A stretch of 64,000 bases of DNA from Gemmatimonadota bacterium. Its GTDB lineage: Bacteria > Gemmatimonadota > Gemmatimonadetes > Gemmatimonadales > GWC2-71-9. Location of the stretch: assembly GCA_040388535.1 (NCBI GenBank), contig JAZKBR010000002.1, forward strand, positions 1-64,000, given 5' to 3'. Shown one piece after another: positions 1,752-50,922 of this stretch. Numbering within the stretch: the first letter of the stretch is position 1; each line of letters begins with the position of its first letter. The notes under the pieces were generated by a model that saw only the letters and a list, made by a program, of their open reading frames with translations, was not told the origin of the DNA and ran no database searches. A program made the position numbers and the translations under genes.

Positions 1752-1754
1752 GGC

Positions 1755-2597: not shown

Positions 2598-2601
2598 CGG
2601 A

Positions 2602-4059
2602 TCAGACCTTCACCGCGATCGTGCGCCACTTCCCCTGGTTGAAGCGCCACATCCCGAGCATCGAGCGAGTGAAGTGCCCGGTGAGGATCGCGATCCAGAT
2701 GTGCATCGGCTGCAGCGTGGTGAAGTGGCGCACCGTGAAGCAGATGCCGAGGGGGATGATGATCTGCGACACAACGGAGATATAGAACGGGCTTCGGGTG
2801 TCGCCCGTCCCTTGCAAGCCGCCCGTGTAGGCGAGCGCCGTTGAAATGAAGATGCCGCTGACCGAGAGCACCCGCAGCAGATGTACACCGATCTCGACCG
2901 CCTCGGGATCATTCATTCCGAAGATGCCGAGCAGCTGTCGTGGAATCAGCAGGAAGGCCAGCCCGATGGTGCCGGCGCCCATGGCACCGAAGCGGGCGGC
3001 AACCTTGACGCCGGCGGCAGCACGATCGGGCTGGTGGGCACCGAGATTCTGGCCCGCCACGGCCGCGGCCGCACCCATCAGTCCGACAGACGTCCAGGTG
3101 ATAAAGGAGAAGAGCTGCGAATACGACACGGCATACGCAGCCTGGGCTGCAGCACTCGCAGCCAACGAGCCGATGAAGCCGAGCATCAGAACACCGCCGA
3201 TGTTCATCGCAATGCCCTGAAATCCTGCCGGCAGCCCGAAGCGGAAGAGCTCGCGAATGATGGCCCAGTCAGGGCGATACCCCATCCCCTTCGGAAACGA
3301 CACCACCCAGCCGCCGTGGTAGAGCTTCCAGATGCCGTACGCACCCACGAGGCCCGAGGCGATTGCGGTTCCCATCGCCGAACCCTTCACGCCGTACGCG
3401 GGGATGGGACCCCAGCCTTGAATCAGGATGATGTTGAGAATGATGTTCCCGATTGTCATTGAGATGCCAAGGATCATTGGGGTCCGCGCGTCGCCGGCGC
3501 TACGCAGCGCGCCACCGAGCATGTAGAAGAGCAGCATCCCCATACTGTAGACGAACATGATCCGGAGGTACGGCAGCGCAAGCGCCTGCACGCCCGGTGC
3601 AGCATTCACGAAGTTGAGCAACACGGGTGACAGGAAGTACCCCAGCGGCGCCAGTACGCCCAGGGAGAGCAGGATCGCCGTGAGGAAGGCCTGATAGACG
3701 GTGCGATCGGCATTGAGATGATCGTTGGCGCCAGCAAAGCGCGCGACCAGCACGCTCATTCCGGTGAAGAGCGACATGATGAACGAGACGACCATGATGA
3801 AGATCTGGTTCGAGACACCGATGGCCGCATTGCCCTGGTACCCGACATAGTGGCCGACCAGGATATGGTCGATCATCCCCTGCATCCCGCCGATGATGTT
3901 GGTGATCATCGCTGGCCACGCCAGCTTCCAGATCGCCGCGGGGAGTGGCCCTTCGATGATCGACCGATCGAACTTCCGGTCGGGTCGCGCCGTGGGTACG
4001 GCCGCGGCCGACGGAACGGCGAGCGCTGGGGCGACGGCGGAAGCAGCGGGTTCAGTCAC
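2602..4059 (-). CDS. MATE-family multidrug/cation efflux transporter
   Basis: A 485-residue inner-membrane protein with about 12 hydrophobic segments after a 45-residue Ala/Pro-rich cytosolic tail. Duplicated halves show the MATE pattern, with WPAMITNIIGGMQGMIDH in the first helix and a related helix in the second half. MATE proteins export drugs or metabolites using a Na+ or H+ gradient. The start is GTG at 4059. It is downstream of an AraC regulator (43-base gap) that could control it. Confidence 0.9.
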   Translation of the reverse strand: MTEPAASAVAPALAVPSAAAVPTARPDRKFDRSIIEGPLPAAIWKLAWPAMITNIIGGMQGMIDHILVGHYVGYQGNAAIGVSNQIFIMVVSFIMSLFTGMSVLVARFAGANDHLNADRTVYQAFLTAILLSLGVLAPLGYFLSPVLLNFVNAAPGVQALALPYLRIMFVYSMGMLLFYMLGGALRSAGDARTPMILGISMTIGNIILNIILIQGWGPIPAYGVKGSAMGTAIASGLVGAYGIWKLYHGGWVVSFPKGMGYRPDWAIIRELFRFGLPAGFQGIAMNIGGVLMLGFIGSLAASAAAQAAYAVSYSQLFSFITWTSVGLMGAAAAVAGQNLGAHQPDRAAAGVKVAARFGAMGAGTIGLAFLLIPRQLLGIFGMNDPEAVEIGVHLLRVLSVSGIFISTALAYTGGLQGTGDTRSPFYISVVSQIIIPLGICFTVRHFTTLQPMHIWIAILTGHFTRSMLGMWRFNQGKWRTIAVKV

Positions 4060-4102
4060 GGGTTCAATCTACTCGTCCCCTCGCAGGGGAGGCTTGGGGA
4101 GA

Positions 4103-4909
4103 TCATTGGTTGAGCCAGAATCCGGTAAGCTCCGGCAGGGCCGCCAGTAATTCGGCCGGGGGCATCCCCGCAAAATCGTGGAAATCGCGGACCAGGTGCG
4201 ACTGATCAGCATAGCCGCACTGCGCTGCCACCCGGGCGAAGCTCCCCGGGTCGTCGCGACGAGCGGCGAAGACGCGCTGGAATCGCGCGATCCGTGTCAG
4301 CAGCTTGGGACTGACCCCCACCTCACGCGCGAAGAGGCGCTGCAACGAACGGAGCGTCAGGCCCTGCGCAAGCGCCAGTTCGTCGCAGCGGAGATTGCCG
4401 TGCGCCAGGAATATCGCGCGGACAGCGGCAACGACCCGGGCATCCGGCATCGGGGCATCTGTCGCGAGGGTCGTGATCGCCGCATCCAGTATCGCCACAC
4501 GTTCGCTCGCGGAATCGGCGGCGGCCAGCTGCTCGGCGACCGGGAGCAGTACGCCATCGCGCAGGGAATTGATTCCCACCCACTGGTCGGTCAGCTCCGC
4601 CATGCAGTCGTGCAGTATGGCCGCACCATAGGGCTCGAAGCGCACCGCGATGAGGTCGCTCCGTCCGGTAGCACGCACCAGCATCGGTCGGGTGATCTGC
4701 CCCACCAGGAACGCCGCCGGCTGGCGGACAGTTCGTCCATCCGGCTCAAGGTGGTCGAACGAATCGCCGAGATTGAAGATCAACTCGGGCGAGCCATCAG
4801 GGAGGGCCGGATCGGCACTCTCGCCGACACTCTCGCCCCGCAGCTGCCAGTAGCAGCGAACGAACGACCGCGGTACCGGACTGGGCAGGAACTCCTGATA
4901 CTCCATCAT
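4103..4909 (-). CDS. AraC-family transcriptional regulator
   Basis: A 268-residue protein. The N-terminal about 150 residues form a cupin-like ligand domain of the type seen with AraC regulators, opening with EYQEFLPSP and RSFVRCYWQL. The C-terminal 100 residues carry two helix-turn-helix units, including LTLRSLQRLFAREVGVSPK and the AraC signature segment CGYADQSHLVRDF. It reads into the MATE pump and diverges from the DUF6265 gene. Confidence 0.88.
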   Translation of the reverse strand: MMEYQEFLPSPVPRSFVRCYWQLRGESVGESADPALPDGSPELIFNLGDSFDHLEPDGRTVRQPAAFLVGQITRPMLVRATGRSDLIAVRFEPYGAAILHDCMAELTDQWVGINSLRDGVLLPVAEQLAAADSASERVAILDAAITTLATDAPMPDARVVAAVRAIFLAHGNLRCDELALAQGLTLRSLQRLFAREVGVSPKLLTRIARFQRVFAARRDDPGSFARVAAQCGYADQSHLVRDFHDFAGMPPAELLAALPELTGFWLNQ

Positions 4910-5009
4910 CAGGATGCCTTCCGCGGCTGTCGCAATTGTCCAAGCCGCTGCGCCGAAGCGCCACTATGCTTGCTCCGGTTCACTTCGTCACCCCAGACAC
5001 GGCGAAAAC

Positions 5010-5483
5010 ATGAAATCGATGCTCGTAACATCCCTGCTCCTCGGCACCCTGGTCCACTCCGCTCGTGCCCAGGGGAGCGCGGATGTCGCCCGCCTCGGCT
5101 GGATCGCGGGCTGCTGGGAACAGCGCTCTGGCACGCGCGTCTCCCACGAACAGTGGATGGCACCGCTCGGCGGCATGATGATGGGGATGAATCGCACGGT
5201 CGCCGGCAATGTGGTCCGCTCCTGGGAACAGCTGCGAATCGAGGTACTCAACGGCAAGGCCGCGTATGTGTCGCAGCCCTCGGGGCAGACGCTTGCGTCC
5301 TTTCCCGCAACGTACGTGAGCGACACGATGGCGGTGTTCGAGAACCCGCAGCACGACTTCCCCACGAAGATCATCTACCGGAAGGCGGGCGCAGACTCGT
5401 TGCGCGCCCGCATCGAGGGCCCGCAAGGCGGCACCACGCGCGGCATCGATTTCCCGATGAAGCGAGTGCGCTGCGGCACCTAG
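5010..5483 (+). CDS. Secreted DUF6265-family protein
   Basis: A 157-residue protein with a cleavable signal peptide (MKSMLVTSLLLGTLVHSARA). The body has the family landmarks GWIAGCWEQ, GGMMMGMNRT, and FENPQHDFPTKIIYR. Function is unknown; the pattern suggests a small extracytoplasmic beta-barrel binding protein. The ATG at 5010 was chosen over an upstream ATG because it directly precedes the signal peptide. It converges on the B3 lactamase gene with a 4-base overlap. Confidence 0.8.
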   Translation: MKSMLVTSLLLGTLVHSARAQGSADVARLGWIAGCWEQRSGTRVSHEQWMAPLGGMMMGMNRTVAGNVVRSWEQLRIEVLNGKAAYVSQPSGQTLASFPATYVSDTMAVFENPQHDFPTKIIYRKAGADSLRARIEGPQGGTTRGIDFPMKRVRCGT

Positions 5484-7000
5484 TTGCCGCGCTCGGTTGC
5501 GATGCGTTTGGCGACGGCAGCGCGGGCCGTGACTACATACCGTCGACAGGCCTCGGCGTCCACCAGCCGGTTGCCAGCAACACGCTCCCAGAGCATCGAC
5601 GCCGAGGGATGCGGCGTGATCAGGACGTCGCACCGCAACCGTTCGAGCACCCGGAACCCACGCTCGAAATCCGCCAGTGCCTCGGGATAGCTCGTGTTGT
5701 TGGTGAAGTGAAAGTCGTCGGCCGAGACCGGTGTTTCACTGTCGGCATAGACAAGGTCACGGCAGATCGCTCCCTCACACGAGCGCCACGACCAGCTGGT
5801 GCCTCCAGGCGTGTGCCCGGGAGTGGCGTGCGCGATGATCTCGAGGGTCCCGACGCGCAGCGTATCGCCGTCGGCAAAGGTGCGAACCTCAGTCACCGGC
5901 GGATACGGCAACGCTGTTCCGAACTGGGGATCGTCCGGATTCGGCAGCCCCCGACGGAGCACAGCTGCGGAGGCCGCGCTCGCGGCTACTGAAGCCCCCG
6001 ACACGCGCTGAATTGCGGCGATGCCACCCGCGTGATCGGAGTGCGCGTGGGAATTCAGGATGAGCTTGATATCGCTCACGTTGAAACCCAGCTGTTTGAC
6101 GTTTGCCAGAATCTGCGACGCCGATTCCGGCAGCCCGCCATCGATCAGGATATGTCCCGCCGGCCCCGTGATCAGGATCGCACTCAGCCCGCGAGTGCCG
6201 ACGTACCAACTGTTGCCGGTGAGCTTGAACGGCGCGGTCGGAATATTCCAGGTGGCGCAATTGGCACAGAGCGCGGGTGGATATGGCGTCGGTGGAGTCA
6301 GCAGCGTGGCCACCAGCGGCAGTGACACCACGCGATAGGCGGGACGGTACGCCGCCTCGAATCGAGGGGAGTGATCCACCGCCGGGAAATGCGCCGCCTC
6401 CCACCGCCGTCCCTGCGCAGTGACGCTGTCGGCATCCCACCTGACCTGGCCGTCGTGCGCCAGCGCGACCACCGCACGAATCGCGCAGCGGAGCGCGGTA
6501 GTATCCGCCGTCGCCGTCCGCGCGGTCGCGACGAATGCCGTCACGACCTCGGAGGGAGCTCTGCCGGTGGCGCGCCACGGTCGCAGGTGAATCCGGGCGA
6601 ACGCCCCATTCGCGCCAAGTGTATCGACCAGCGGCTCCGCGGGGCCGTCGCCGAGCGAGGCCCATTCGCGCGTCATCCAGCGGGCTGGCTCGAGCGGGTC
6701 ACGCACCGCGTGTTCACTCCCCAGCGTGGCCTGCTGCAGGAGCTTGAACGCATCGACCGGTTCCATTGCCGGATACCGCGCCAGGTGGGCCAGCGTCAGG
6801 GCGGCCCATCGGCTGTCGGGGCCGCAATCGACGGAGCGACTGCAGGCGGTGATGAGCAGCGTGAGGCACCATGGTGCGCATCGGCGAAGCGCGCGGCGAG
6901 TACGATCGAGGGCGCCCAGAGTGTACTCACGGCTGAAGTAGAGAGAGGAGCGGTTCGCAACACGGAGATGCGCGGGCGTACCTGACGACCCGACACCCAT
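5480..7000 (-). CDS. Lipoprotein-type fusion: unknown domain plus subclass B3 metallo-beta-lactamase
   Basis: A 506-residue open frame from ATG 7000. Residues 245-506 are a complete subclass B3 metallo-beta-lactamase: zinc ligands His318, His320, Asp322, His323 (HAHSDH), His396 (TPGHTPG) and His464 (TPHPS), and the B3-like tail from YPEALADF onward. Residues about 60-235 are a separate domain I do not recognise, preceded by a lipobox LITAC with Cys53. The start is uncertain because 50 residues precede the lipobox. An internal GTG-GTG pair just before the lactamase (about 6330) could start a shorter enzyme. Family knowledge predicts beta-lactam hydrolysis, but B3 relatives with other roles exist. 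Confidence 0.82.
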   Translation of the reverse strand: MGVGSSGTPAHLRVANRSSLYFSREYTLGALDRTRRALRRCAPWCLTLLITACSRSVDCGPDSRWAALTLAHLARYPAMEPVDAFKLLQQATLGSEHAVRDPLEPARWMTREWASLGDGPAEPLVDTLGANGAFARIHLRPWRATGRAPSEVVTAFVATARTATADTTALRCAIRAVVALAHDGQVRWDADSVTAQGRRWEAAHFPAVDHSPRFEAAYRPAYRVVSLPLVATLLTPPTPYPPALCANCATWNIPTAPFKLTGNSWYVGTRGLSAILITGPAGHILIDGGLPESASQILANVKQLGFNVSDIKLILNSHAHSDHAGGIAAIQRVSGASVAASAASAAVLRRGLPNPDDPQFGTALPYPPVTEVRTFADGDTLRVGTLEIIAHATPGHTPGGTSWSWRSCEGAICRDLVYADSETPVSADDFHFTNNTSYPEALADFERGFRVLERLRCDVLITPHPSASMLWERVAGNRLVDAEACRRYVVTARAAVAKRIATERGN

Positions 7001-7094
7001 GATACCTGAAGGCGCCCGACGAGCGAAAAGGCTTCTTACGGCTCGCTGACCAGGAGGAACGGATGCAACCCCCAGCGGGCGCCACGCCTGGCCC

Positions 7095-8309
7095 TCACGG
7101 CCTGGGAAGAACGCCAGCCCGTCGGTTGTCGATGAAGCGATGGAATCGAATGTGGCGGAAGCCCTGGCTATCGACCACAGTACCGAGCAGGCCATCTGCG
7201 TCAATCTGATTGATTTCGAATCCGGGCGGGAGCGCAACATCCCCTTCCCAATGGCCCGCGGAGTCAAAGACACTCGCCTGAACCCGCTCTCCGATGTCAT
7301 TCTCGCCAAATGTCGCCCAGAGTCTGCCGTCACCGGCCAGCCATACACCCGAGACCGGCGGTCGCACGCGCGATGTCGACGTCTCGAGCAGGCGGGCACG
7401 AAATCGGTCTCGCGTCGCGGCCGGCCGCAGGCTCAGGAAGGCGGCAGCGGCCTTGTCGAATTCCGCTGATGAAATCGTTCGGGGTAACGTCGAACGCCGC
7501 ACGATCTGCTGCAGGATCCCATTCGCAGAGTAGATCCGAACCTCGAAGCGATCGCCCGCAGCGAACGCGATCCGACCGGCACGCTGATGGTAGCCTGGGA
7601 CTGGCGTGAACAACGGGTTCCCGAATGTCCAGGTTGGTTCGATCGGATGCCGCATGCGAAGCACCCCCGGGTAGCTGAAGAGGGAGTCCCACTTGCCGCC
7701 GCCGACGGGCGCTCGAAATAACGTCACCTGGGAACGAATGGCCGGCTGCGTATCATCTCGGTGGTCGGACCTTGAAGACTCGATGAGAAGCGAGCCATCG
7801 TCGAACACACCGGTGATCCAGCCGCCCGGTCGCCCGGGAGCTTGGGCGAAATGGGAGAAGGAGAGGAAGGCTCCGTCCGGGTGCCAGCGCTGCACCCGTT
7901 CCGTGCCGGGTTCATAGGTCACGAGGGTATCGCCCGGTCCCTGGAAGACAAAGCCCAATCCCTCGAATTCCCCCGGGCCGGACCCGCGACGGCCGACGGT
8001 GCGAATCCAGCGTCCCGCTCCATCGAACAGCCGCATCTCCGTCGTCGCCCAGCCCGCCGCTACAAGAGCACCATTCGCCAGCCTGATCACCGAGAGCGGT
8101 GACGTGGCGAACTCACTACTGGAGCCGGCGGCAGGGCCGACATCGAGAGTCGGCGCGGAATCGATTGAAAATGCAATTCCAGCGGGCGACCGGCTCTCGG
8201 CAATGCTGATTCCTGCACTATCGTGGACCACGCTGGTGGCACCTCGGGATCCACCACACCCGGCCACGCAGATCGCCGCGACGAGGCGCGTGCCGACATG
8301 GTATCTCAT
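7095..8309 (-). CDS. Six-bladed beta-propeller lipoprotein
   Basis: A 404-residue protein with a lipoprotein signal (lipobox AAICVAGC) and NHL-like propeller repeats, including RRGSGPGEFEGLGF, a phrase typical of 6-bladed propeller lipoproteins. No catalytic residues are apparent; the likely role is binding at the outer or inner membrane surface. The ATG at 8309 is used; a GTG at 8318 lies three bases after the SH3 gene stop. It is the last gene of the run starting at 10934. Confidence 0.75.
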   Translation of the reverse strand: MRYHVGTRLVAAICVAGCGGSRGATSVVHDSAGISIAESRSPAGIAFSIDSAPTLDVGPAAGSSSEFATSPLSVIRLANGALVAAGWATTEMRLFDGAGRWIRTVGRRGSGPGEFEGLGFVFQGPGDTLVTYEPGTERVQRWHPDGAFLSFSHFAQAPGRPGGWITGVFDDGSLLIESSRSDHRDDTQPAIRSQVTLFRAPVGGGKWDSLFSYPGVLRMRHPIEPTWTFGNPLFTPVPGYHQRAGRIAFAAGDRFEVRIYSANGILQQIVRRSTLPRTISSAEFDKAAAAFLSLRPAATRDRFRARLLETSTSRVRPPVSGVWLAGDGRLWATFGENDIGERVQASVFDSAGHWEGDVALPPGFEINQIDADGLLGTVVDSQGFRHIRFHRFIDNRRAGVLPRP

Positions 8310-8321
8310 CGACCCCACGGC

Positions 8322-9161
8322 TTACGGCTCCGTTACCGTGAACACCGGATGCAACTCCCAGCGCGCCCCGGGGCTCGAGTTGCATCGGCCATGGTCGTTG
8401 GAGTTGCGGTGCCAGCCATCGTAGAACGCGGCACCGACGAACCTCACCCTCACGGCAGGAGTGACATCGCCGTTCGACGCCAGATTCGAGGCATCGAGCA
8501 AGACCTCGAGCGCTGCCCGCGCGTCGGCGTATTCGCCACCGTGCTCGGGATCGGGAATCTCGGCGATGATGCAATTCCCGACCGCCGCACTCTTCGTCGC
8601 GGTAAACTCGATGTGCCAGTCGCCGTCCTCCTCGTGTTTCTTGACGCGGCGAACCCAGCCCGTCACCTCGTAGGCGCGCAGTTCCCTGCCACCACGATCC
8701 GCGCACAACGACCCGAGATCGCGACCGATCTCCGCACCAGGCCAGCCGAGCATCGTCGTCACAGTGGTGTGAGTCGGAGGCTCGGTGACATCGGAATGAT
8801 CGACCTTCGCGGCCCAGCGGTAGTACTTCTCGCCGCCGCAGAGCGGATGTCCGGTGGATCCGTCGGCGGGGTGAAAATCGAGCGCTGGTTCATCGGGGTC
8901 ACTCAGGACGAGATAGTGACCGTGCACCCAACCTTCATCGCCCGAGGGAAGCGCCACGTGAAAGAAGCCGGCGGCAGCGACCTCGGTCGAGAGGAGCGAC
9001 ACGTGGGCGTTCTTCGCGAGCACTTTGAGGATGCTGTCGTCGAGCGTCGGGCCGGCACGGAGGCGCACGCGCTCGGTGGTGCGAGCCTCCTGTGGCAGAA
9101 GCCGTGCTGTGCCGGCGCAGAGTGCCAGCACGAGCAGCGATGACACCCTTCGCGCGATCAC
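8322..9161 (-). CDS. Secreted bacterial SH3-domain protein
   Basis: A 279-residue protein with an N-terminal signal peptide, then a bacterial SH3-like domain at about 30-90 (VRLRAGPTLDDSILKVL to EGWVHGHYL). The remaining 190 residues form a Cys- and Trp-containing domain that I do not recognise. Bacterial SH3 domains usually bind peptidoglycan or peptides. The GTG start overlaps the RidA stop as GTGA, which indicates translational coupling. Confidence 0.78.
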   Translation of the reverse strand: MIARRVSSLLVLALCAGTARLLPQEARTTERVRLRAGPTLDDSILKVLAKNAHVSLLSTEVAAAGFFHVALPSGDEGWVHGHYLVLSDPDEPALDFHPADGSTGHPLCGGEKYYRWAAKVDHSDVTEPPTHTTVTTMLGWPGAEIGRDLGSLCADRGGRELRAYEVTGWVRRVKKHEEDGDWHIEFTATKSAAVGNCIIAEIPDPEHGGEYADARAALEVLLDASNLASNGDVTPAVRVRFVGAAFYDGWHRNSNDHGRCNSSPGARWELHPVFTVTEP

Positions 9162-9640
9162 CGGAACTCGACCTCGCCTTCGATTTCGACCGGAATCCGG
9201 AACGGCAGCTCGGCCATCCCGACTGCACTGCGCGCGTGGGCGCCAATCACCGGCCCGAAGAGTTCAAGAATGAGATCGGAGCAACCGTTGATCACGAGCG
9301 GCTGTGACGTAAACCCGGGGGCCGAGTTGACCATACCGAGGAGTCGCGTCCAGGCGGTGATGCGGTCGAGATCACCAAGCGCACGCTGCAGCGAGCCCAG
9401 CAGGGAGAGTGCGACGAGGCGCGCCGCGTGCTGTCCCTGTTCGAGGGTGAGATCGTGGCCGACTTTCCCCAGTGGTTCCGCGATCGAGCCATCGGGATTC
9501 TGGGGACCGTGACCGGAGATGATCGCGCGCTGGCCGACAATTCGCACCATCTCGAATGGCAGGACCACCCCGGGAGGTGGCGTGAGCGGCGCCGGGAGCA
9601 CCAGCCCCAGGGCGAGCAGGCGTTCCTCGATACGGCTCAC
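9158..9640 (-). CDS. RidA/YjgF-family enamine/imine deaminase
   Basis: A 160-residue cytosolic protein of the long RidA type, with segments VGQRAIISGHGP, LLGMVNSAPGFTSQP and the closing LPFRIPVEIEGEVEF. RidA proteins hydrolyse reactive enamines and imines released by PLP enzymes such as threonine dehydratase. Here the gene overlaps a threonine dehydratase-like gene by 4 bases (GTGA), so the pairing makes biochemical sense. GTG start. Confidence 0.88.
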   Translation of the reverse strand: MSRIEERLLALGLVLPAPLTPPPGVVLPFEMVRIVGQRAIISGHGPQNPDGSIAEPLGKVGHDLTLEQGQHAARLVALSLLGSLQRALGDLDRITAWTRLLGMVNSAPGFTSQPLVINGCSDLILELFGPVIGAHARSAVGMAELPFRIPVEIEGEVEFR

Positions 9641-10617
9641 GAGTTACTCCCGGCGCTGATGAGGGTGGCGAACTTTTCCAGGTCGATATTGCCGCCTGAG
9701 ACAATCACGGCGATCGGCCCGTTGCCCGCCTTCCCGGTGAGCGCGGCGGCAAGGGCGAGTGCGCCCGCTCCCTCGGAGACCACGCGTGCGCGCGATGCCA
9801 GGAGGCGCATCGCTGCGCGCGTCTCTTCGAGCGTGACCACCACATACTGATTGACCAGCGGCGCGATCCGCTGCCACATCCGCGGCAGCATTGACTTCCC
9901 TCCCGCGCCATCCACGAATGATGCGCGCCAGCCGGGAAATGGCTGGGGTATCCCGGTGGCTGCGGTGAGCGCGGCGGGAGATCCGGTCTCCGGCTCCGAA
10001 CCGACCAGGGCGATCTCCGGTCGCAGCGTCTTGAGGACGCTGCCGATCCCGGCGATGAGTCCGCCACCACCGATCGGTGCGATCACGGTCGCGATATCGG
10101 GCGCATCCTCGAGAATTTCGAGGGCGATCGTCCCGTGCCCGGCGATGAAGTCGTGATGATCGAAGGGATGGATGAAGGTGCCCGCGATCCCCTCGAACTG
10201 GTGCTCTTCCATCGCCTGCCACGCGACATCAAACGGCACCGGTACGACCCGGGCGCCCAGCTCCCGCATCCGGTCGAGCTTCGCCACCGGTGCCGACTCG
10301 ACTGCGACCACGGTGCAGGGAATTCCGGCGGCACGCGCCGCCCAGGCGACTCCCTGCCCCGCGTTCCCGGCACTCACCGTCCAGACACCGCGATCTCGCT
10401 CCGCCGGAGAGAGGAGGGCCACCGCATTTGCGGCGCCGCGCAGCTTGTAGGAGTTGATCGGTTGCAACGTCTCGAGCTTCACGAGGATCTCGGGGAAGCC
10501 GGGGCCGAGATCGAGTGGCACCAGCGGCGTCCGGAAAACGGTGCCGGCGATCCGGTCGCGGGCGGCAAGGATCTCATCCAGCGAAATCGGTCGCACGGCG
10601 GGGAGCGCGTGGCTCAC
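9637..10617 (-). CDS. Threonine/serine dehydratase-like PLP enzyme
   Basis: A 326-residue fold-type II PLP protein. The Schiff-base lysine is Lys58 in NSYKLRGA, the substrate loop is SAGNAGQG at 82-89, and the phosphate-binding glycine loop GGGG is at 183-186. It lacks the C-terminal regulatory ACT domain of long IlvA, so it resembles catabolic threonine/serine dehydratases. The start is GTG 10617, overlapping the upstream stop as GTGA. It is coupled to RidA downstream, which would clear its enamine product. Confidence 0.87.
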   Translation of the reverse strand: MSHALPAVRPISLDEILAARDRIAGTVFRTPLVPLDLGPGFPEILVKLETLQPINSYKLRGAANAVALLSPAERDRGVWTVSAGNAGQGVAWAARAAGIPCTVVAVESAPVAKLDRMRELGARVVPVPFDVAWQAMEEHQFEGIAGTFIHPFDHHDFIAGHGTIALEILEDAPDIATVIAPIGGGGLIAGIGSVLKTLRPEIALVGSEPETGSPAALTAATGIPQPFPGWRASFVDGAGGKSMLPRMWQRIAPLVNQYVVVTLEETRAAMRLLASRARVVSEGAGALALAAALTGKAGNGPIAVIVSGGNIDLEKFATLISAGSNS

Positions 10618-10934
10618 AGTTGCGGTCCAGCGGTAGAGAGGCCTCGCCCGACCAGGTAGCCGATTCCCGCGCCGAGGAGTGCGAATCCCACCGCAGCAAT
10701 CGAGGCATACGAACCGGTCGCCATCACATTCATCACCAGCACGGGCACGCCCACCCCGAGTCCGATGAGCCAGGCCCACCGCGGCTGCATTGCCGCGAGC
10801 ACCAGCGACGAGAGGAGCACCGCGCCGACAGTGACGCCGGTGTCGTCCCAGGTCGGCTGCGAATCGAAATGGCCGATCACGCTGCCAGCCGCAATGGCAC
10901 AGGCAACACCCAACCACACCGGGAGTTTGCGCAT
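10614..10934 (-). CDS. Small four-helix membrane protein
   Basis: A 106-residue inner-membrane protein with about four hydrophobic segments and glycine-rich helices (GLGVGVPVLVMNVMATG). No family recognised. Its stop codon overlaps the start of the dehydratase-like gene by 4 bases, so it heads a coupled run of five genes ending at 7095. Confidence 0.65.
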   Translation of the reverse strand: MRKLPVWLGVACAIAAGSVIGHFDSQPTWDDTGVTVGAVLLSSLVLAAMQPRWAWLIGLGVGVPVLVMNVMATGSYASIAAVGFALLGAGIGYLVGRGLSTAGPQL

Positions 10935-39796: not shown

Positions 39797-42225
39797 CTAC
39801 TCCCCGCGCAGCGCCTGCGCCGGATCCGCCTGCGACGCACGCCGCACGGGGAGGAGGGTCGCGACCACCGCCGTGAGTACGATCCCCAGCGTGGCCGCTC
39901 CGAAGGTGAACGGGTCGAGCGGTGCGACCCCGTAGAGCATCGAGGCCAGCATCCGGACGGCGACCAGCGCACCGGGAATGCCGATCAACAGGCCGAGGCC
40001 GATCAGCCGCAGCCCGCGCTGAGCAATCAGACTGCGAAGCTGCCGTGCGCGCGCACCAAGCGCGGCCCTGATCGCCAGTTCCCGCCGTTGCTCACCCACC
40101 TCGTGCGAAAGCACCGCGTATAGGCCCAGTGCGGCGAGCAGCACGGCCAGCAGCGAAAAGGCCGTGAGGATGAGCATCGCGAATCGCTGCCCGGCAATGG
40201 AGGCCGCGACCGCCTCATCCATCGTGCGAACGTCGATCAGCGGTTGTTCGGCGTCCGCACCGCGCACCGCACTCCGGATCGCGGGAACCAGCGACCCGGG
40301 GTCAGCCTTTGTCCGGACCACCAATGCGCCCCCCGATGCCGGGCCCTGAGCGTAGGGGAGATAGAGCTCCGGGATCGGAGCCGACACGAGTGCGTCGTGA
40401 CTGACATCGCCCACGACCCCGACCACCTGCACTGCAACGCCATCACCACCAGCAAAGCGGATCCGTTGCCCAACCGCGCGCTCGCCAGGCCAGAATTGCC
40501 GGGCCATCGCGCGATTGATCATCACAACCTGCGGTGCCCTGGGGTCATCCGTCGCTGCAAAGCTGCGGCCATCGATCACCGGGATCCCAAGCGTCGCGAA
40601 GTACGCCGTGCTCACCACGCGCGCGCCGACCGATGGTGCCTGTTCTGGCGGTTGCGGATGCGCCACAATCTGGATGACCGACATCCCGTACGCCGGATCG
40701 AGCGGCAATCGGCTCGAGAAGGCGACCGATGTCACGCCAGGTACGGCACCGAGTTGCGCCTCGATTCGACCGAGATACTCGGCCTGCTTCTCGGGGGTCG
40801 GGTAGCGCGTGGGAAGCATCCCGAACCGCATGGTGACCAGATGATCCGGACGGAAGCCGGGTCGATCCGGTCGAGGTTGAGCAGAGTCCGCACCATCAGC
40901 CCCGCGCCGACCGTCAGCACAAAGGCCAGCGCCACCTGTGCCGAGGCCACCGCACGCCTCGCGCGTGACGAAGCCGAGCCGGCGGTGGTCCGACGGGTGC
41001 CTGAGCGCAGCAGCTCCGACGATCGCGCGCCCATTCCGCGACCTGCCGACACCACGGCCAGCGCTGCGCCGAGGGTGAGCGCGATCAATACCGTGAAGAG
41101 GGCGACCCCGGCGTCGAGCCGAATCTGATCGAGGCGCGATGTCGTCGGTGGCGCGATCGCGACGAGGAGTGCGTGCCCCCACTGGGCGAGCGCCAGACCG
41201 AGGATTGTGCTTGTCATCACGAGCAACAGGCTGTCCCAGAGCGCTTCGCGCAGCAGCGCCAGCGTGGAGGCCCCGAGCGCTCGCCGGATTGCGATCTCCC
41301 CCTGGCGCGAGACGGCCCGTGTGAGGAAGAGGTTCGACACATTGGCAACTGCGACGAGCAGCAACAGCACCACCGCGGCAAACATCGCCTCGAGAATCGG
41401 CTTCACCCCGCCGATGATCTGCTCCGGGAGCGGGACGACATCGAAACTGACGTTGGTGTTGCTCGCGGGATACTCGGCGGCGAGCCGTGCCCCGAGCTGG
41501 CGCACGGACCTGCGAGCGCCATCGGCATCAACGCCGTTGCGCAACCGGCCGATCACCTGCAGCATTGCGGCGTTGCGAGTCTGCAATGCCACGGGGAGGT
41601 CGAGCGGCGCCCAGAGTTCGGCACGCTGATGTGCGGCCTTGAAAAAGGCAGGCGTGCTGAACTCGCGCGCCATCACCCCGACCACCGTGTACGGCTCACC
41701 GTCGATGTCGAGCACGGTGCCGATCACGGCCGGGTCGGCGTGAAGCCGGGATCGCCACATCGCGTCGCTCAGCACGACGACCCGGCGACTCCCGGCGATG
41801 GTGTCGCCCGGACCGAGCACCCGGCCAAGGGCAGCGCGGGCCCCAAGCAGGGCGAAGTAGTTGCCGGTGACCTGCGCTCCGCGGGCGAGCTCGGGGGTGT
41901 CACCGACCCTGACGGTCATTCCGCTGCCGAGCTGGGCCGCCGCGTCCTCAAAGGCACTACCGTGCTGGCGGATGTCCTCGTAGTTGAGGAGCGAGACGCT
42001 GAACCGGTTGTTATTGGACTTGGTGAGATCTTCCCAGACCATCACGAGGCGATCGGCCCGGACATAGGGGAGCGAGTGGATCAGGACGCCTTCGACTGCG
42101 GAGAATACGGTCGCCGTTGCGCCAATCGCCAGAGTCAGCGTCACAATCACGGCCACGGTGAAGCCTCTGGCCCGCAACAACCGGCGCAGCGCGTGCGTGG
42201 CCGACTGGCGAAACGTGTCGAGCAT
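39797..42225 (-). pseudogene. ADOP-type FtsX/MacB permease disrupted by one-base frameshift
   Basis: Two overlapping frames together encode one ADOP permease of about 810 residues. The upstream part has the MacB core and FtsX domain 1 up to LLNLDRIDP; the downstream part resumes with FRPDHLVTMRFGMLP. One G is missing at about 40857-40862 (CCGG run), where an extra G would restore the frame. The C-terminal half then has SRLPLDPAYGMS and the FtsX domain 2. It may be a true mutation or a sequencing error. No ATPase gene is nearby. Confidence 0.82.
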
Positions 42226-42251
42226 GGCGTTCACTCCTGGTCATTGGGGCG

Positions 42252-45203: not shown

Positions 45204-46406
45204 TCAGGCCAGCTCGTGTTTCAGCGCCGCCACGAGCGCATCGACGTCACGTCCGGAATTGAAGAGATGCGTCGACACCCGATTGCCATTGAGCCACGTC
45301 TTCGGAACGACCTTGAGTTCGATCCGGTACTTCGTGCGGATCAACTTCTGGAACGTCGCACTATCGATGGCGTCGGGAAGGGTGTACGTCAGGAGCGGTG
45401 ACGCCAGCGGGCCGGGTGGCGGACTCACGACGCGCAGCTTGGGCACATCCTGCAAGGCGTGATAGAGTCGGTCGCGGAGCGCGAGGTTGTGGCGCTCGAT
45501 CTCGCGAATCCCGATCGCGCTGATGTACTCCAGGGCCGCACCGAGGCCGAGGATGCTCGGAATGCTGCTGACCCCGGAGGAATTGGAGTAGGCGCTGCGA
45601 CCGCCCTGCAGCGCAATCGGGTCAACACGATTCGCCACGTCCTCGCTCAGATAGAGCAAGCCCGTCCCCTTGGGGCCGAGCAGCCATTTGTGCCCACTGG
45701 TGGCGTAGACGTGGCAGCCGAGCGCCTTCACATCCACCGCAATGCCGCCCACTGCCTGCGCACCATCAACAACAGCGATGCAGCCGCGTGAGCGCGCCAG
45801 TGCCGAGAGTTCCGCGACCGGCATCCGCAATCCCGTGGAACTGAGCACGTGGGAGAACGAGAAGGCGCGCGTGCGTGGCGTGACCGCCTGCGCGAAGCGG
45901 TCAACAATGGCCCGTGCGTCGTTTTCTCCCGGAGGGATCGCCACCACGTCGAGCTCGACGCCAGAGCGCCGCACCACGTAGTCCCAGCAAGCGCGCCCAC
46001 CGGGATGCTCCTGATCGGTGGTCAGGATCCGGTCGCCCGCCACGAGCTGCATCCCCTGCGCCGTCCAGTTCATTCCTTCGGTTGTGCAGTTGGTCAGCAC
46101 GAGTTCTCCGGTCGCACATCCGATGAACGTCGCAGCTTGCGCGCGAACCTCATCCATCGCCCTTTCCAGTCGACCATAGCCGTTCGCCACGGGATCGCGT
46201 TCGAGCTCCCGCCACGCCGCGATGGTGCGCTCCATCACTGGGCGTGGCGTTGGGCCTAACGATCCCGTTTGGAGAAAGATGAGGCCGGGAAGGAAGGCGA
46301 AGTCGCCCCGGGTGCTGGCCGCATCGCGATGAGGCGGAATCAAAGGTGCCGCGGAGAGTGCGCCGAGCGCGGCGAGAAAGTCCCGGCGTGAGGGGTCGTC
46401 GGCCAT
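45204..46406 (-). CDS. Tat-exported class V aminotransferase
   Basis: A 400-residue fold-type I PLP enzyme with a Tat signal (SRRDFLAALGALSAAP). PLP residues: Asp214 (VVDGAQAVGG) and Lys240 (SGHKWLLGPKG). It resembles isopenicillin-N epimerase/cysteine desulfurase-like enzymes; the reaction cannot be told. It begins three bases after the membrane protein gene of the CHAT cassette, so it is likely co-transcribed. Confidence 0.85.
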   Translation of the reverse strand: MADDPSRRDFLAALGALSAAPLIPPHRDAASTRGDFAFLPGLIFLQTGSLGPTPRPVMERTIAAWRELERDPVANGYGRLERAMDEVRAQAATFIGCATGELVLTNCTTEGMNWTAQGMQLVAGDRILTTDQEHPGGRACWDYVVRRSGVELDVVAIPPGENDARAIVDRFAQAVTPRTRAFSFSHVLSSTGLRMPVAELSALARSRGCIAVVDGAQAVGGIAVDVKALGCHVYATSGHKWLLGPKGTGLLYLSEDVANRVDPIALQGGRSAYSNSSGVSSIPSILGLGAALEYISAIGIREIERHNLALRDRLYHALQDVPKLRVVSPPPGPLASPLLTYTLPDAIDSATFQKLIRTKYRIELKVVPKTWLNGNRVSTHLFNSGRDVDALVAALKHELA

Positions 46407-46409
46407 GGA

Positions 46410-46949
46410 TTACTGGCCACCTTTCGGCGCGTCGATGATCGTCGCCTGACAGAGGTCCTGGAGATATATCCGGGTAGAGTCGTTCGCCAGCTGCACCGTC
46501 ACGATGGTCGAATCAGGACAATGTGCCGGTGGCGCCCTCACGAAGACCGCGAAGCCTGCTCGGGGATCCCGGGAGGTCTGCACCGAGTCCTTCCAGCGGC
46601 GGAAATCATATTGCACCTGACGGATCGACATCGCGGCACGCTGGCTGGCATCGACCCAGAGAAAGTAGTCGTATAACTCCGACGTGATGTTGGCGACCCG
46701 GCGCCGCGCCGTCCGCACGCCGCCATCCGGCGCGTCAACCAGGGTGTGGACCATTCGGCTGAGACTCGCCTTCTGCTGCGCGAGCGCGCTGAGGGTATCG
46801 CGCTGCTCCGCGAGTCGAGCTTCAATCTGCCCGATCCGATAGCTGCTCCAGCCGATCGCACTGGCCAGCATGGCAAGCAGGGCGACCGTTCCGATCAGGG
46901 CCCGCCGTGATGCAGATCGTGCGTCATGCAGGAACCCGTCGTGGGTCAC
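46410..46949 (-). CDS. Membrane coiled-coil protein, CHAT cassette (2)
   Basis: A 179-residue protein from GTG 46949: short cytosolic part, one membrane helix (about 15-35), a coiled coil (QIEARLAEQRDTLSALAQQKASLSRMV), then a soluble domain of about 110 residues with two cysteines. GTGA overlap with the upstream gene. It has the same plan as its neighbour but no obvious sequence match. No family recognised. Confidence 0.68.
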   Translation of the reverse strand: MTHDGFLHDARSASRRALIGTVALLAMLASAIGWSSYRIGQIEARLAEQRDTLSALAQQKASLSRMVHTLVDAPDGGVRTARRRVANITSELYDYFLWVDASQRAAMSIRQVQYDFRRWKDSVQTSRDPRAGFAVFVRAPPAHCPDSTIVTVQLANDSTRIYLQDLCQATIIDAPKGGQ

Positions 46950-47497
46950 GATCCCCCCTTCCAACCCGCATCCCGGACGATCTCCTCCATCGGGAAATCG
47001 AACGAGAATTTCGTCCCGGCCTTCATCTCAACGGTGACCGGAATCGTGACCCATGGCCACCAGCCGAGCCATCCCACGAGGAAGCCATTCGAGGCCTCAC
47101 TGGCGACTCGCACTGGTGTGGTCGTCTGGCCGGAGAAGTAGTACGACACCCGACGGATCTCTGGCCGCCGCGAGAAGGGAAATTCGAGCCAGAGGAGAAA
47201 GCCGTACCCGGGGCATTGCCCGTGGCTGTCACGTCCGAAGCCGTCGTAGGCGGGCGTGCACGCCACCTTCTGCGCCGGGACCGCAACCGCCCTGGGCGTC
47301 AGCAGCGACTCCAGTGGCCCGGTACGAATGTGATCGATCTCCCGCTGCAAGGAGTCTCCCTGGGCGCTCAGCGCGCGGAGCGAATCTGCCTTCAACGCAT
47401 AGGAGGCATCGAGGCGACGCACTTCTGCAGCGCCGTATGCAACGGCGGCCACCATGCCGATCAGTCCGACGGCGGAGAGTACACCGCTCGTGCTCAC
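46946..47497 (-). CDS. Membrane coiled-coil protein, CHAT cassette (1)
   Basis: A 183-residue protein from GTG 47497: membrane helix at about 5-23, a coiled coil (EVRRLDASYALKADSLRALSAQGDSLQREIDHI), and an exported aromatic-rich domain with two cysteines (KVACTPAYDGFGRDSHGQCPG). GTGA overlap with the CHAT gene. No family recognised. It may be the target or sensor of the CHAT protease (inference). Confidence 0.68.
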   Translation of the reverse strand: MSTSGVLSAVGLIGMVAAVAYGAAEVRRLDASYALKADSLRALSAQGDSLQREIDHIRTGPLESLLTPRAVAVPAQKVACTPAYDGFGRDSHGQCPGYGFLLWLEFPFSRRPEIRRVSYYFSGQTTTPVRVASEASNGFLVGWLGWWPWVTIPVTVEMKAGTKFSFDFPMEEIVRDAGWKGGS

Positions 47498-48954
47498 GAG
47501 GCCGACATCTCGCGCACCATCGCCACTGTTCGTTCGTTGATCTTGAGGAGGCGACTCACCAGAAAGAGGACCGCACTCCCCGAGGCACCGGTGACCGGGA
47601 TAATCCCGGCCTGCGGCGCCGAGTGCGCACTGCCCGATGGCACAAGGCTCCAGGCCGCAACCAGGAAGACCAGCGCAGACACGATGATCAACGCGAGCAT
47701 CGTGTATCGCTCCGGCGCGAAGGTCGCATTCAGTGCCTGCATCGCCTGTACTCGCGCTGCGAGCGCGTGCTGCCGGGCCCCGGTGCCTCCGGCGGTATTG
47801 CCTCCCTCTGCTTCCTCCCCACCAGCGGCTGCCGCCGTCTCGAAGAGTGCCCCGTCTTTCGATCGCATGAAGAGCACCGGCGTCGCCCACTCCCACGACT
47901 TCCGGTCGGCCATCCGAATTGCCTTCCGGGCCTCGGCGACCGCCGCGTCAACGGGAAAGCCCTCGACCAGGCGGGGATAGAAGGTGCTCGCAAATTCGAT
48001 CGCGGCATTGTCGGAAATCGGGAACTGCATCGCGACCACAGCCGGTACACCTGCCATCACCAGCGCACTGGCAACGCCAGCGAACGGATCGAGTCCCGGA
48101 CCGCTGCCGACCCTGGCCGTGTTACAGGCGTTCAGGAACACGAGCCGCATCGACGCCACGTCGCGAAGCAGCATCCCGAGAGTCGCTCCATCGATCGGAC
48201 TCGGCTGACCCGCGTCGTCCTCCAGCAGCAGGACGCCCGTTCCGCGGTCGGGATCGAAATCGCCGTGTCCCATGAAGTGCAACACGTGGTAGTGGCGGGC
48301 GGCGAGGCGGTCGGTGAGCTGACGACTCGTCACCCGGTCGAGGAAATCCACCGCGACATCGGCACGCTTGCCCCAGGTTGTCTCGATTGCCTTCCGTTCG
48401 TGCGCGAGATCGAGTGGCGGAGCGCCGGCGGGGCTCGAGACCGCCACCAGAATGCGGAGCGGTGGCGAGAAAGGCAGGAGCGCGAATGGCCGCTGCACGT
48501 CGAGATAGCGAACCAGTGGTGTCCCGCGCGAGAGCGAGAGGAAGTCGCGCGTCTCGGCCCGATACATCAACTCCCACGGAAGCGAGGCGAGCCCGGCGAG
48601 GTCGGGATCGTTCGGATCAATATGCAACTTGATCCGCAACCCGATCTCACGACCCTGAATGTGACCGAGGCTGGTGTTGAAGAGATCCCGACACGGGCCG
48701 GAGAAGAGCGCCTGGAACAGCATGTCGCCGAGTGTCGGCGGATGGTGGTGGGCGGCACCCTGCTCGGCGCGGATGATGATTTCTCGCGTGCCGCGTACCG
48801 CATGTCCAACCCCACCCAGCAAGGCCCCCACGTCGGCCGGCGCGAACGGCAGCCGGAGCTCTGAACTCCCTTCACCAGCCGGCGACTCGATCCCGACGAC
48901 GAAGAATTCGCCGCGTCGGGATTCGATCCGGATGATGAAGTCGAGGTATTCCAC
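47494..48954 (-). CDS. Membrane-anchored CHAT-domain (caspase-like) protease
   Basis: A 486-residue protein. Residues 1-150 form an N-terminal domain (VRGTREIIIRAEQ, LPWELMYRAE). The CHAT domain covers about 160-365, with catalytic His230 (HFMGHGDFD) and Cys277 (LNACNTARV). An Ala/Gly-rich linker is followed by two membrane helices (about 419-438 and 449-468). CHAT proteins are caspase-like cysteine peptidases, several of which act in immunity or cell death. It is coupled to two membrane genes. Confidence 0.87.
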   Translation of the reverse strand: MEYLDFIIRIESRRGEFFVVGIESPAGEGSSELRLPFAPADVGALLGGVGHAVRGTREIIIRAEQGAAHHHPPTLGDMLFQALFSGPCRDLFNTSLGHIQGREIGLRIKLHIDPNDPDLAGLASLPWELMYRAETRDFLSLSRGTPLVRYLDVQRPFALLPFSPPLRILVAVSSPAGAPPLDLAHERKAIETTWGKRADVAVDFLDRVTSRQLTDRLAARHYHVLHFMGHGDFDPDRGTGVLLLEDDAGQPSPIDGATLGMLLRDVASMRLVFLNACNTARVGSGPGLDPFAGVASALVMAGVPAVVAMQFPISDNAAIEFASTFYPRLVEGFPVDAAVAEARKAIRMADRKSWEWATPVLFMRSKDGALFETAAAAGGEEAEGGNTAGGTGARQHALAARVQAMQALNATFAPERYTMLALIIVSALVFLVAAWSLVPSGSAHSAPQAGIIPVTGASGSAVLFLVSRLLKINERTVAMVREMSAS

Positions 48955-49011
48955 GCTTGCGCTACATCGCCGGGTGCAGCGCGAGTGACTCTTCGGTGAA
49001 GCCGTGTCGGA

Positions 49012-49764
49012 TCATGACGTCGGGGCCTGCGGGGAAGGTGAGCCGAGAAAGCGAACCGGAAGGATCATCTCCGTTACAGTAGCTCCATTCCGCTCGACCC
49101 GATATGCACCGCCCTCAGGACGGGAGCTCACGATCTCGACCAGCTCGGTCCCCTTGAAGTGGTACGCCACCCCGTCATCGGCAGCGAAACCGCCCTGCAT
49201 CCCGCCCGCGACGGCGTTCTGGTAGACCGGTCGACGCTCGGCCTCGCCGTCGTAATGGGGGCAAGCCGTCGCATCGATGAAGCCCAGACCGTCGTTGAGT
49301 GGCGCCAGCCCGCCGAATGAGTCGGTGATCCCGCCGTTGAACCAGCAGAGCATCCCGGCGCTGGCACCGGCGAGCACGGCGCCATTCTCCCAGGCCCGAC
49401 GAAGTGCGGCGTCGATGCCGTGACAGCGCCAGAGCACCAGCATGTTCGCGGTGTCGCCGCCCCCCACGTAGATCACATCCTGGTCGGCAATGAAATCGGC
49501 CAGCTGCGACGTCAGTTCCGGCTGCCGCGGCAACGTTGGCGAGGCCCAGAGCGTCAGGTCGGTGGGAGTGCATCGCCCGGAGAAGGCGCGGTAGAACTTG
49601 ATGATGTAGGTCGCCGAATCGGCGCTCGCCGTCGGGAGAAAACAGACTCGGGCCGGTTGCCGTCGCGACAGCCCGAGTACAAAGTCGTCAAGCAGCGGGT
49701 TGTCCGGCTCCATCGCGAATCCACCACCGCCCATCGCGACAATGTGACCCTTGATTGATTCCAA
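49012..49764 (-). CDS. Peptidase E-like (S51) protein
   Basis: A 250-residue protein of the class I glutamine amidotransferase-like fold. The nucleophile is Ser135 in AGASAGML, with His170 in CPHYDGE; the N-terminus IVAMGGGGFAMEP and VIYVGGGDTANML are family hallmarks. Peptidase E cleaves Asp-X dipeptides in the cytosol. It lies 57 bases above the CHAT gene and 33 bases below the HExxH gene. Confidence 0.88.
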   Translation of the reverse strand: MESIKGHIVAMGGGGFAMEPDNPLLDDFVLGLSRRQPARVCFLPTASADSATYIIKFYRAFSGRCTPTDLTLWASPTLPRQPELTSQLADFIADQDVIYVGGGDTANMLVLWRCHGIDAALRRAWENGAVLAGASAGMLCWFNGGITDSFGGLAPLNDGLGFIDATACPHYDGEAERRPVYQNAVAGGMQGGFAADDGVAYHFKGTELVEIVSSRPEGGAYRVERNGATVTEMILPVRFLGSPSPQAPTS

Positions 49765-49797
49765 GCGCAGCCTCCGGCAGGGAAGTCGGGGAATCCT

Positions 49798-50922
49798 TCA
49801 AGGTATCACAGGCTTCGCCACTCTCGCCCGCCATTCGGCACGGATCCGCTCCCATGGCTCCCCGAGTTCACGGATCAATACGGCCCTGACCTCGGCCTGG
49901 CCGGGGCCGGCCTGGAGGAAACGCCTGAGCGCGGCCACTCCGCCGCGCCGATAGAGCAGCCCGCAGAGCACGGCCCCGGCGGTGTAGCTCTCGGTCTGGG
50001 GCATCGCCCCTGGGGTAATCGCGGAATCCAGTGAGGCACGCGGATGCTCAGTCAGGTAGCGATCGAGCGCCCTGACTGCACCACTGAGCGTCATCCCTGA
50101 GGTTCCACCCAGCCAAGTCGCGATCCCTTCGGATGCGATGATAGTGATCGAGCGCCCTTCGAGCAGCGGGCGCAACACGACATGCACCAGTTCGTGGCGG
50201 TAGTTCTCACCGAGGGATGGAATGGCACTGAAGATCTGATAATTCACCGGCTTCGCGAAGGCACCACCGGGGCCGAACTTCCGGTCGTATTCGACGCCAA
50301 GGGCCGCGAGCGCGGCATCGACCGTGGGCGTCACGTAATAATCGAGATGCGTCACTGGTGGAGTCGCGAACGCTGGGGCGAGCGAATCGACGAAGGCGAC
50401 CGCGGCTTCGGCACGTGCCCGGTTGAAGGTGAGCGTGGGCTCGATGTGATAACGGATCGGACCGACAGTTTCGCGTCGCCATGCTGCCACGCGGCGGTCG
50501 AGCACGTTCTGGAGCAACCAGCGGTCGCCAACCTTCACGACGCCCCAGCTCGCCCGCATCGTGCCGAAGCGGACCTGGATCTCGTAGCTGCCCGGCGCGA
50601 GTTGTCGAACCCCGACGATCGCTGGTGCCGACCCCCCTGGCACATAGGACCCGGCGAGATCGTACATCGGCCACTTGGCTTGCTCGTCGGCAACCCAGAG
50701 CGATGAGGCAACGCCGGCGAACCGGGCGAGCTGCTGCTCTTTCGAATTGAAATACGCCCACCAGGTGCGGTACACCACGGCCCGCTCACCCGTCGAGTCG
50801 GGGCGAAATGCCGCTGGCTCAGGTCCGGTGCCCAAGTAGAGGCCCGACGAACGTTCAGTCCCCCACGCACCCGCTGCGACCAGCAGAAATGTCATGACGG
50901 TCGCGTACGTCGACGATTGCAT
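49798..50922 (-). CDS. Secreted gluzincin-like metallopeptidase homologue
   Basis: A 374-residue protein with a signal peptide. The zinc motif HELVH is at 243-247 and the third ligand is likely Glu265 in SEGIATWLGG, as in gluzincins. The N-terminal 150 residues form an unrecognised domain. Spacing between HExxH and the Glu (18 residues) is normal. It is 33 bases above the peptidase E-like gene. Confidence 0.8.
   Translation of the reverse strand: MQSSTYATVMTFLLVAAGAWGTERSSGLYLGTGPEPAAFRPDSTGERAVVYRTWWAYFNSKEQQLARFAGVASSLWVADEQAKWPMYDLAGSYVPGGSAPAIVGVRQLAPGSYEIQVRFGTMRASWGVVKVGDRWLLQNVLDRRVAAWRRETVGPIRYHIEPTLTFNRARAEAAVAFVDSLAPAFATPPVTHLDYYVTPTVDAALAALGVEYDRKFGPGGAFAKPVNYQIFSAIPSLGENYRHELVHVVLRPLLEGRSITIIASEGIATWLGGTSGMTLSGAVRALDRYLTEHPRASLDSAITPGAMPQTESYTAGAVLCGLLYRRGGVAALRRFLQAGPGQAEVRAVLIRELGEPWERIRAEWRARVAKPVIP

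What the first reader, a model, noticed from the sequence alone, without database searches (positions are those of the whole stretch)
45204..50922. Multi-protease cassette: CHAT caspase-like protein with two membrane coiled-coil partners, peptidase E, HExxH protein and Tat aminotransferase
Six same-strand genes in 5.7 kb include three unrelated peptidase-type proteins (HELVH at 243-247, S51 Ser135, CHAT His230/Cys277). The CHAT protein has two C-terminal membrane helices and overlaps two single-helix coiled-coil proteins by GTGA. Known CHAT peptidases act in immunity, often by cleaving a membrane-active partner. A membrane-bound protease coupled to two unknown membrane proteins could be a cell-death or stress-response system. 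Operon membership of the aminotransferase and the gluzincin-like gene is inference.
Basis: partly seen in the sequence, partly recalled or inferred. Interest (0 to 1): 0.78.

Follow-up and report, generated by a model that had tools for sequence, protein, structure and literature searches.

The report
Membrane CHAT protease with two partners
A Gemmatimonadota-type bacterium carries a caspase-like protease gene overlapping two sister genes for small membrane proteins, probably a small membrane signalling or self-defence unit; the other enzymes beside it are ordinary neighbours and not part of a larger protease machine.

Summary
The 'multi-protease cassette' does not hold. In same-genus and same-family genomes the S51 gene, the HELVH gene and the aminotransferase each sit at unlinked places without CHAT.

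What remains is a three-gene unit joined by 4-bp GTGA overlaps: a CHAT peptidase with a C-terminal membrane hairpin, then two single-helix coiled-coil proteins. These two are tandem paralogues (28% identity). Both carry a weak, sub-threshold match to the prokaryotic YEATS domain (pYEATS), the only two in this genome. Elsewhere in the class pYEATS is fused to SIR2 or lies beside a SLATT-like membrane gene.

The His-Cys dyad is invariant in nine CHAT relatives, but none of 18 relative loci has the two partner genes; several carry their own membrane helix plus a variable tail, and six lie beside caspase genes. No other trio was found in 395 genomes of the phylum.

Best reading: a locally assembled, membrane-tethered CHAT signalling/conflict module in which the paired proteins are more likely sensors or regulators than substrates. 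New variant of a known kind, with a single example.

The parts
47494..48954 (-). CHAT (caspase-like) peptidase, 486 aa, GTG start; catalytic domain about residues 74-376, then an Ala/Gly-rich linker and a C-terminal two-helix membrane hairpin
   Evidence: Pfam CHAT E 1.6e-32; His230 and Cys277 invariant in 10 family members; hydrophobic segments 420-438 and 449-467
48265..48267 (-). codon of catalytic His230 (HFMGHGDF)
48124..48126 (-). codon of catalytic Cys277 (LNACNTA)
47554..47697 (-). two C-terminal membrane helices of the CHAT protein (residues 420-438 and 449-467) with a 10-residue loop
   Evidence: hydropathy scan
46946..47497 (-). partner 1: 183 aa, one N-terminal membrane helix (6-24), coiled-coil-like helix, C-terminal beta domain (99-166, pYEATS-like), two cysteines (80, 95)
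   Evidence: overlaps CHAT by GTGA; PF20305 E 0.0037, below cut-off; paralogue of partner 2, E 8e-6; AF2 model helix 3-59 then beta strands, pLDDT 60
46410..46949 (-). partner 2: 179 aa, one N-terminal membrane helix (17-35), coiled-coil-like helix, C-terminal beta domain (93-135, pYEATS-like), two cysteines (144, 167)
   Evidence: overlaps partner 1 by GTGA; PF20305 E 0.0021, below cut-off; AF2 model, pLDDT 62
49012..49764 (-). peptidase family S51 protein (peptidase E/cyanophycinase-like), TTG start; neighbour, not shown to belong
   Evidence: Pfam S51 E 7.9e-39; homologues 59-62% in G004 and G006, unlinked to CHAT
49798..50922 (-). gluzincin-like protein HELVH (243-247) plus Glu265; neighbour, not shown to belong
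   Evidence: no Pfam hit; 58% homologue in G006 on another contig without CHAT or S51
45204..46406 (-). class V aminotransferase with weak Tat signal, 3 bp downstream of partner 2; possibly co-transcribed, functionally separate
   Evidence: Pfam Aminotran_5 E 1.2e-52; homologues 68-74% in five related genomes; the four neighbourhoods read had no CHAT or partner gene

Best explanation
The real unit is three genes: a CHAT cysteine peptidase held at the membrane by a C-terminal hairpin, and two duplicated single-pass membrane proteins with a coiled-coil stalk and a small Ig-like, probably pYEATS-related, head domain. The most likely working: the two sister proteins form a membrane sensor or regulator that docks the peptidase through helices in or next to the membrane and keeps it off. 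A signal read by the head domains switches the peptidase on, and it then cuts one or a few cellular targets, in a defence, stress or cell-death response. Shown: the genes, overlaps, intact and conserved catalytic dyad, membrane helices, paralogy. Supported but below formal cut-offs: the pYEATS-like domain. Inferred: complex formation, direction of regulation, the signal, the target, the biological role.
For: CHAT domain with invariant His/Cys. GTGA overlaps at both junctions. The partners are paralogues (BLASTP E 8e-6) and the only two pYEATS-like matches in the genome. Their two-sequence profile matches a pYEATS profile at score 31.5 against a maximum of 19.1 in 200 column shuffles. In the same class pYEATS is fused to SIR2 (two genomes) or lies beside a SLATT/DUF4231-like membrane gene, which are conflict-type settings. 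CHAT relatives often have a C-terminal membrane helix plus a variable tail, and six lie beside caspase genes, one of them also beside an nSTAND1-WD40 gene, so sensor-like variation around a constant CHAT core is the family's pattern.
Against: One example only: no other locus has the trio. pYEATS matches are below the Pfam gathering cut-off. A four-sequence pYEATS HMM does not rank the two genes first among window ORFs. AF2 confidence is low and Foldseek gives only unspecific beta-sandwich hits, no YEATS structure in the listed top 50. Membrane topology cannot be fixed from charge distribution. No defence-island context was seen in the window. PADLOC matches are only to the shared CHAT domain.
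Confidence: 0.42

Rival explanations
1. The two membrane proteins are the substrates: activated CHAT cuts one or both, releasing a fragment that damages the membrane or signals (the first reader's idea, parallel to Csx29-Csx30 or protease-activated gasdermins).
For: CHAT peptidases do cleave a protein encoded beside them: Csx29 cuts Csx30, dependent on H615/C658 (PMC10028731). The trio has overlapping genes and so may be translationally coupled.
Against: The partners are single-helix coiled-coil proteins with a beta head, not recognisable pore formers. CHAT relatives have no such partners. No sensor would then be left in the unit.
Confidence: 0.25
2. A housekeeping or developmental membrane protease, like cyanobacterial HetF (CHAT plus membrane helix, divisome and heterocyst role), not a conflict system.
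For: HetF is the only NCBIfam match (E 7e-22, residues 74-376, far below its cut-off). HetF has a CHAT domain and one TM and acts in division (PMC8406250). Partner 1 has a faint DivIC-like match, and some of the best outside hits of the partners are FtsB/DivIC-type TM coiled coils.
Against: Not conserved in the genus, so not a core function. The DivIC-like similarity is confined to the TM coiled coil. HetF has no known pYEATS-like partners.
Confidence: 0.2
3. The six genes are one multi-protease operon with a joint function.
For: Same strand, gaps of 33, 57, -4, -4 and 3 bp; no terminator-like site beyond chance between them.
Against: Homologues of S51, HELVH and the aminotransferase occur separately, without CHAT, in related genomes. 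The same-strand run continues upstream into SnoaL, metallo-hydrolase and two-component genes with similar gaps.
Confidence: 0.05
4. Chance adjacency: CHAT and the two paralogues are unrelated lineage-specific genes.
For: Single example, no conserved linkage.
Against: Two successive GTGA overlaps, tandem paralogy, and a domain type (pYEATS) that keeps conflict-type company elsewhere.
Confidence: 0.15

Closest known systems
CHAT-TM proteins of Gemmatimonadota and others (L033, L043, L122, L123, L125, L127), some beside caspase genes
   Same: same N-terminal region and CHAT core, about 39-54% identity, conserved His/Cys, C-terminal membrane helix
   Different: one helix and a tail domain in cis; no paired TM coiled-coil genes; the window locus has no caspase neighbour
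Csx29 (TPR-CHAT, Craspase) with Csx30
   Same: CHAT cysteine peptidase acting on a protein encoded next to it (PMC10028731)
   Different: TPR repeats and activation by Cas7-11/target RNA; the window CHAT has no TPR domain, no CRISPR genes nearby, and a membrane hairpin
PDB 8tl0 CHAT domain-containing protein (nearest solved CHAT chain; from memory, the SAVED-CHAT type)
   Same: CHAT domain, detectable sequence similarity (E 4.8e-6; profile 6e-19)
   Different: no SAVED nucleotide sensor found in the window protein; membrane hairpin instead
Borvo (BovA) anti-phage protein
   Same: CHAT-type domain match (PADLOC E 3e-8)
   Different: match limited to part of the profile; no evidence of the rest of BovA
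HetF
   Same: membrane-associated CHAT protein
   Different: longer, TPR-containing; window protein far below the NCBIfam cut-off (77.5 against 1200 bits)
Prokaryotic YEATS (pYEATS, PF20305) proteins: SIR2-pYEATS, SLATT-neighbour pYEATS, TM-pYEATS
   Same: beta-rich domain with the same motif order, small and accessory, in predicted conflict settings
   Different: window proteins score below the family cut-off, and are a tandem TM coiled-coil pair coupled to CHAT

Membership tests
CHAT peptidase (PF12770) | significant CHAT domain match | tested here: met
   113.6 bits against cut-off 24
CHAT peptidase (PF12770) | catalytic His-Cys dyad | tested here: met
   H230 and C277, invariant in 10 aligned members
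CHAT peptidase (PF12770) | proteolytic activity | not testable with these tools
   needs biochemistry
pYEATS (PF20305), partners 1 and 2 | score above the gathering cut-off (26.9 bits) | tested here: not met
   17.6 and 18.4 bits in the protein scan, 19.5 and 19.4 in the genome scan
pYEATS (PF20305), partners 1 and 2 | remote homology by profile | tested here: inconclusive
   hhalign E 1.4e-4, probability 52%; 31.5 against at most 19.1 in 200 shuffles, but the 4-sequence HMM does not single them out
pYEATS (PF20305), partners 1 and 2 | YEATS fold | tested here: inconclusive
   beta-strand-rich heads at pLDDT about 60, built with pYEATS rows; Foldseek unspecific
Craspase / TPR-CHAT (Csx29) | TPR repeats and Cas7-11 locus | tested here: not met
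   no TPR domain; no such gene among those annotated nearby
SAVED-CHAT | SAVED domain | tested here: not met
   only the CHAT domain found by Pfam; PADLOC match covers profile 101-270 of 498
Borvo (BovA) | full-length BovA match | tested here: not met
   match covers profile 521-669 of 711 only
HetF | NCBIfam equivalog cut-off | tested here: not met
   77.5 against 1200 bits
   outer genes unlinked in G001, G002, G004, G006, G009, G010

The most novel reading that the evidence does not exclude
A caspase-like CHAT peptidase wired to a duplicated pair of membrane-anchored YEATS-type receptors: a transmembrane protease switch not described so far as I know, in which a split, two-component sensor replaces the tail domain that related CHAT proteins carry in cis.
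Probability: 0.25. Interest if true: 0.6.

Novelty: new variant of a known kind. Interest (0 to 1): 0.36.

Why it matters
CHAT peptidases are a widespread and mostly unexplored branch of the caspase superfamily. How they are switched on is known for only a few, mainly CRISPR-linked, cases. A compact three-gene membrane version with a likely sensor pair would be a tractable model for signal-controlled proteolysis at a bacterial membrane. Equally useful is the negative result: three protease-like genes side by side here are not a cassette.

Tried and rejected
Six-gene cassette: rejected on unlinked homologues of the outer genes. Full-length homologues of the partners in 151 relatives and, by the two-sequence profile, in 395 genomes of the phylum: none; most weak hits fall on the TM coiled coil, and two of them are FtsB/DivIC-like proteins beside enolase (L056, L060). 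pYEATS on plasmids: no match to one class member. PADLOC and NCBIfam gave nothing for the partners beyond weak TM coiled-coil matches. Fold searches of both AF2 models: only unspecific beta-sandwich matches. Literature searches for pYEATS found nothing in the held library. A pYEATS survey in another phylum was not possible because that option takes only G handles.

Full report
Observation. Pfam gives CHAT (1.6e-32), peptidase S51 (7.9e-39) and class V aminotransferase (1.2e-52); the HELVH protein has no Pfam hit. It has HELVH at 243-247 and Glu265 in SEGIA, and its homologues keep HE..H and the Glu, so gluzincin-like is fair. Gaps along the minus strand are 33 bp (HELVH to S51), 57 bp (S51 to CHAT), -4, -4 and 3 bp (to the aminotransferase). 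The same-strand run continues upstream with similar gaps into SnoaL, metallo-beta-lactamase-fold and two-component genes, so direction and spacing alone do not mark a cassette.

The cassette fails. In same-genus genome G006 the HELVH homologue (58%) is on contig 7 and the S51 homologue (59%) on contig 6; in G004 S51 (62%) is also elsewhere; none has CHAT or the small genes beside it. The aminotransferase has homologues at 68-74% in five genus or family members; the four neighbourhoods read (G001, G002, G009, G010) contain no CHAT, partner, S51 or HELVH gene. The three outer genes are therefore best read as independent genes that happen to be neighbours here.

The trio. CHAT, partner 1 and partner 2 are joined by two GTGA overlaps. 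CHAT has hydrophobic segments at 420-438 and 449-467 (a third, 291-309, lies inside the catalytic domain and is not counted as a membrane helix); each partner has one near its N-terminus. The partners are paralogues: 28% identity over the alignment, BLASTP E 8e-6 for the pair. Both have PF20305 (pYEATS) as best Pfam match, at E 0.0037 and 0.0021, below the cut-off. A scan of 295 genomes of the class finds these as the only two such matches in this genome, and over-cut-off pYEATS in just four genomes. A profile of the two partners against a profile of four class pYEATS domains gives hhalign E 1.4e-4, probability 52%; 200 column shuffles reach at most 19.1 against the real 31.5. Against this, either partner alone gives no significant profile match, a plain HMM of those four sequences does not single out the two genes, and AF2 models (pLDDT 60-62, with pYEATS rows in the alignment) show a long helix followed by beta strands but give no specific structural neighbour. 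I call the domain pYEATS-like, not a proven member.

Context of the parts elsewhere. pYEATS in this class occurs as SIR2-pYEATS fusions (L090, L091), as a standalone gene beside a DUF4231/SLATT-like two-helix gene and a hydrolase in a locus that also appears to hold DNA methyltransferase genes (L089), and as a TM protein (L092). Prokaryotic YEATS domains were proposed as sensors in immune systems by Burroughs and Aravind (J Bacteriol 2020); this is from my own knowledge, the paper is not in the held library. CHAT relatives were read at 18 loci, a few of them near contig ends. The dyad is invariant in the ten aligned sequences. None has the partner pair. Several have a single C-terminal helix and a variable tail, others a different tail without a helix, and six lie beside Peptidase_C14 genes (L035, L038, L041, L043, L122, L128), with an nSTAND1-WD40 gene next to L041. 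The own genome has such a caspase-CHAT locus too (L043). The family thus varies its C-terminal or partner part around a constant CHAT core.

Mechanism. I favour sensor/regulator partners controlling a tethered peptidase because the family varies its tail domain as sensor parts usually vary, because pYEATS is an accessory rather than a toxic domain elsewhere, and because the partners lack pore-former features. Substrate partners remain a serious rival, since Csx29 cleaves its neighbour Csx30 (PMC10028731), and a HetF-like division role a lesser one (PMC8406250; NCBIfam match at 77.5 against 1200 bits). Topology is unsettled: flanking charges are similar on both sides of the partner helices; the two cysteines in each partner would fit a disulphide in an exported domain, but that is a guess.

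Limits. The relatives are a sample, near-identical genomes may be left out by the tools, and the genome-contig scan reaches close relatives only. The trio is a single example, so its unity rests on gene overlap and paralogy, not on conservation. Nothing here was tested at the bench.

Noticed in passing
window 39797-42234, minus strand: Two overlapping ORFs in different frames (39797-41182 and 40732-42234) that together look like one MacB/FtsX-type permease, suggesting a frame break (pseudogene or assembly indel).
   Followed up: no
L043 (G000:C2:494000-512000), 1556-10028: Second CHAT locus of the same genome: Ser/Thr kinase, repeat ORF, caspase-DUF7379, CHAT with one membrane helix; closer to described caspase/CHAT conflict loci than the window trio.
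   Followed up: partly
L089 (G123:C1), 8219-10921: Standalone pYEATS gene (E 1e-23) next to a DUF4231/SLATT-like two-helix gene and a DUF676/DUF7379-like hydrolase, in a locus with DNA methyltransferase-like genes: possible pYEATS-SLATT defence unit.
   Followed up: partly
L090 7438-8898 and L091 6745-8406: SIR2_2-pYEATS fusion proteins in two Gemmatimonadota genomes.
   Followed up: partly
L043 4740-8246, L122 345-3389, L044 1-1170: DUF7379 recurs next to CHAT genes, fused to caspase in two cases, and weakly in the hydrolase beside the pYEATS gene of L089: a possible shared component of these systems.
   Followed up: no
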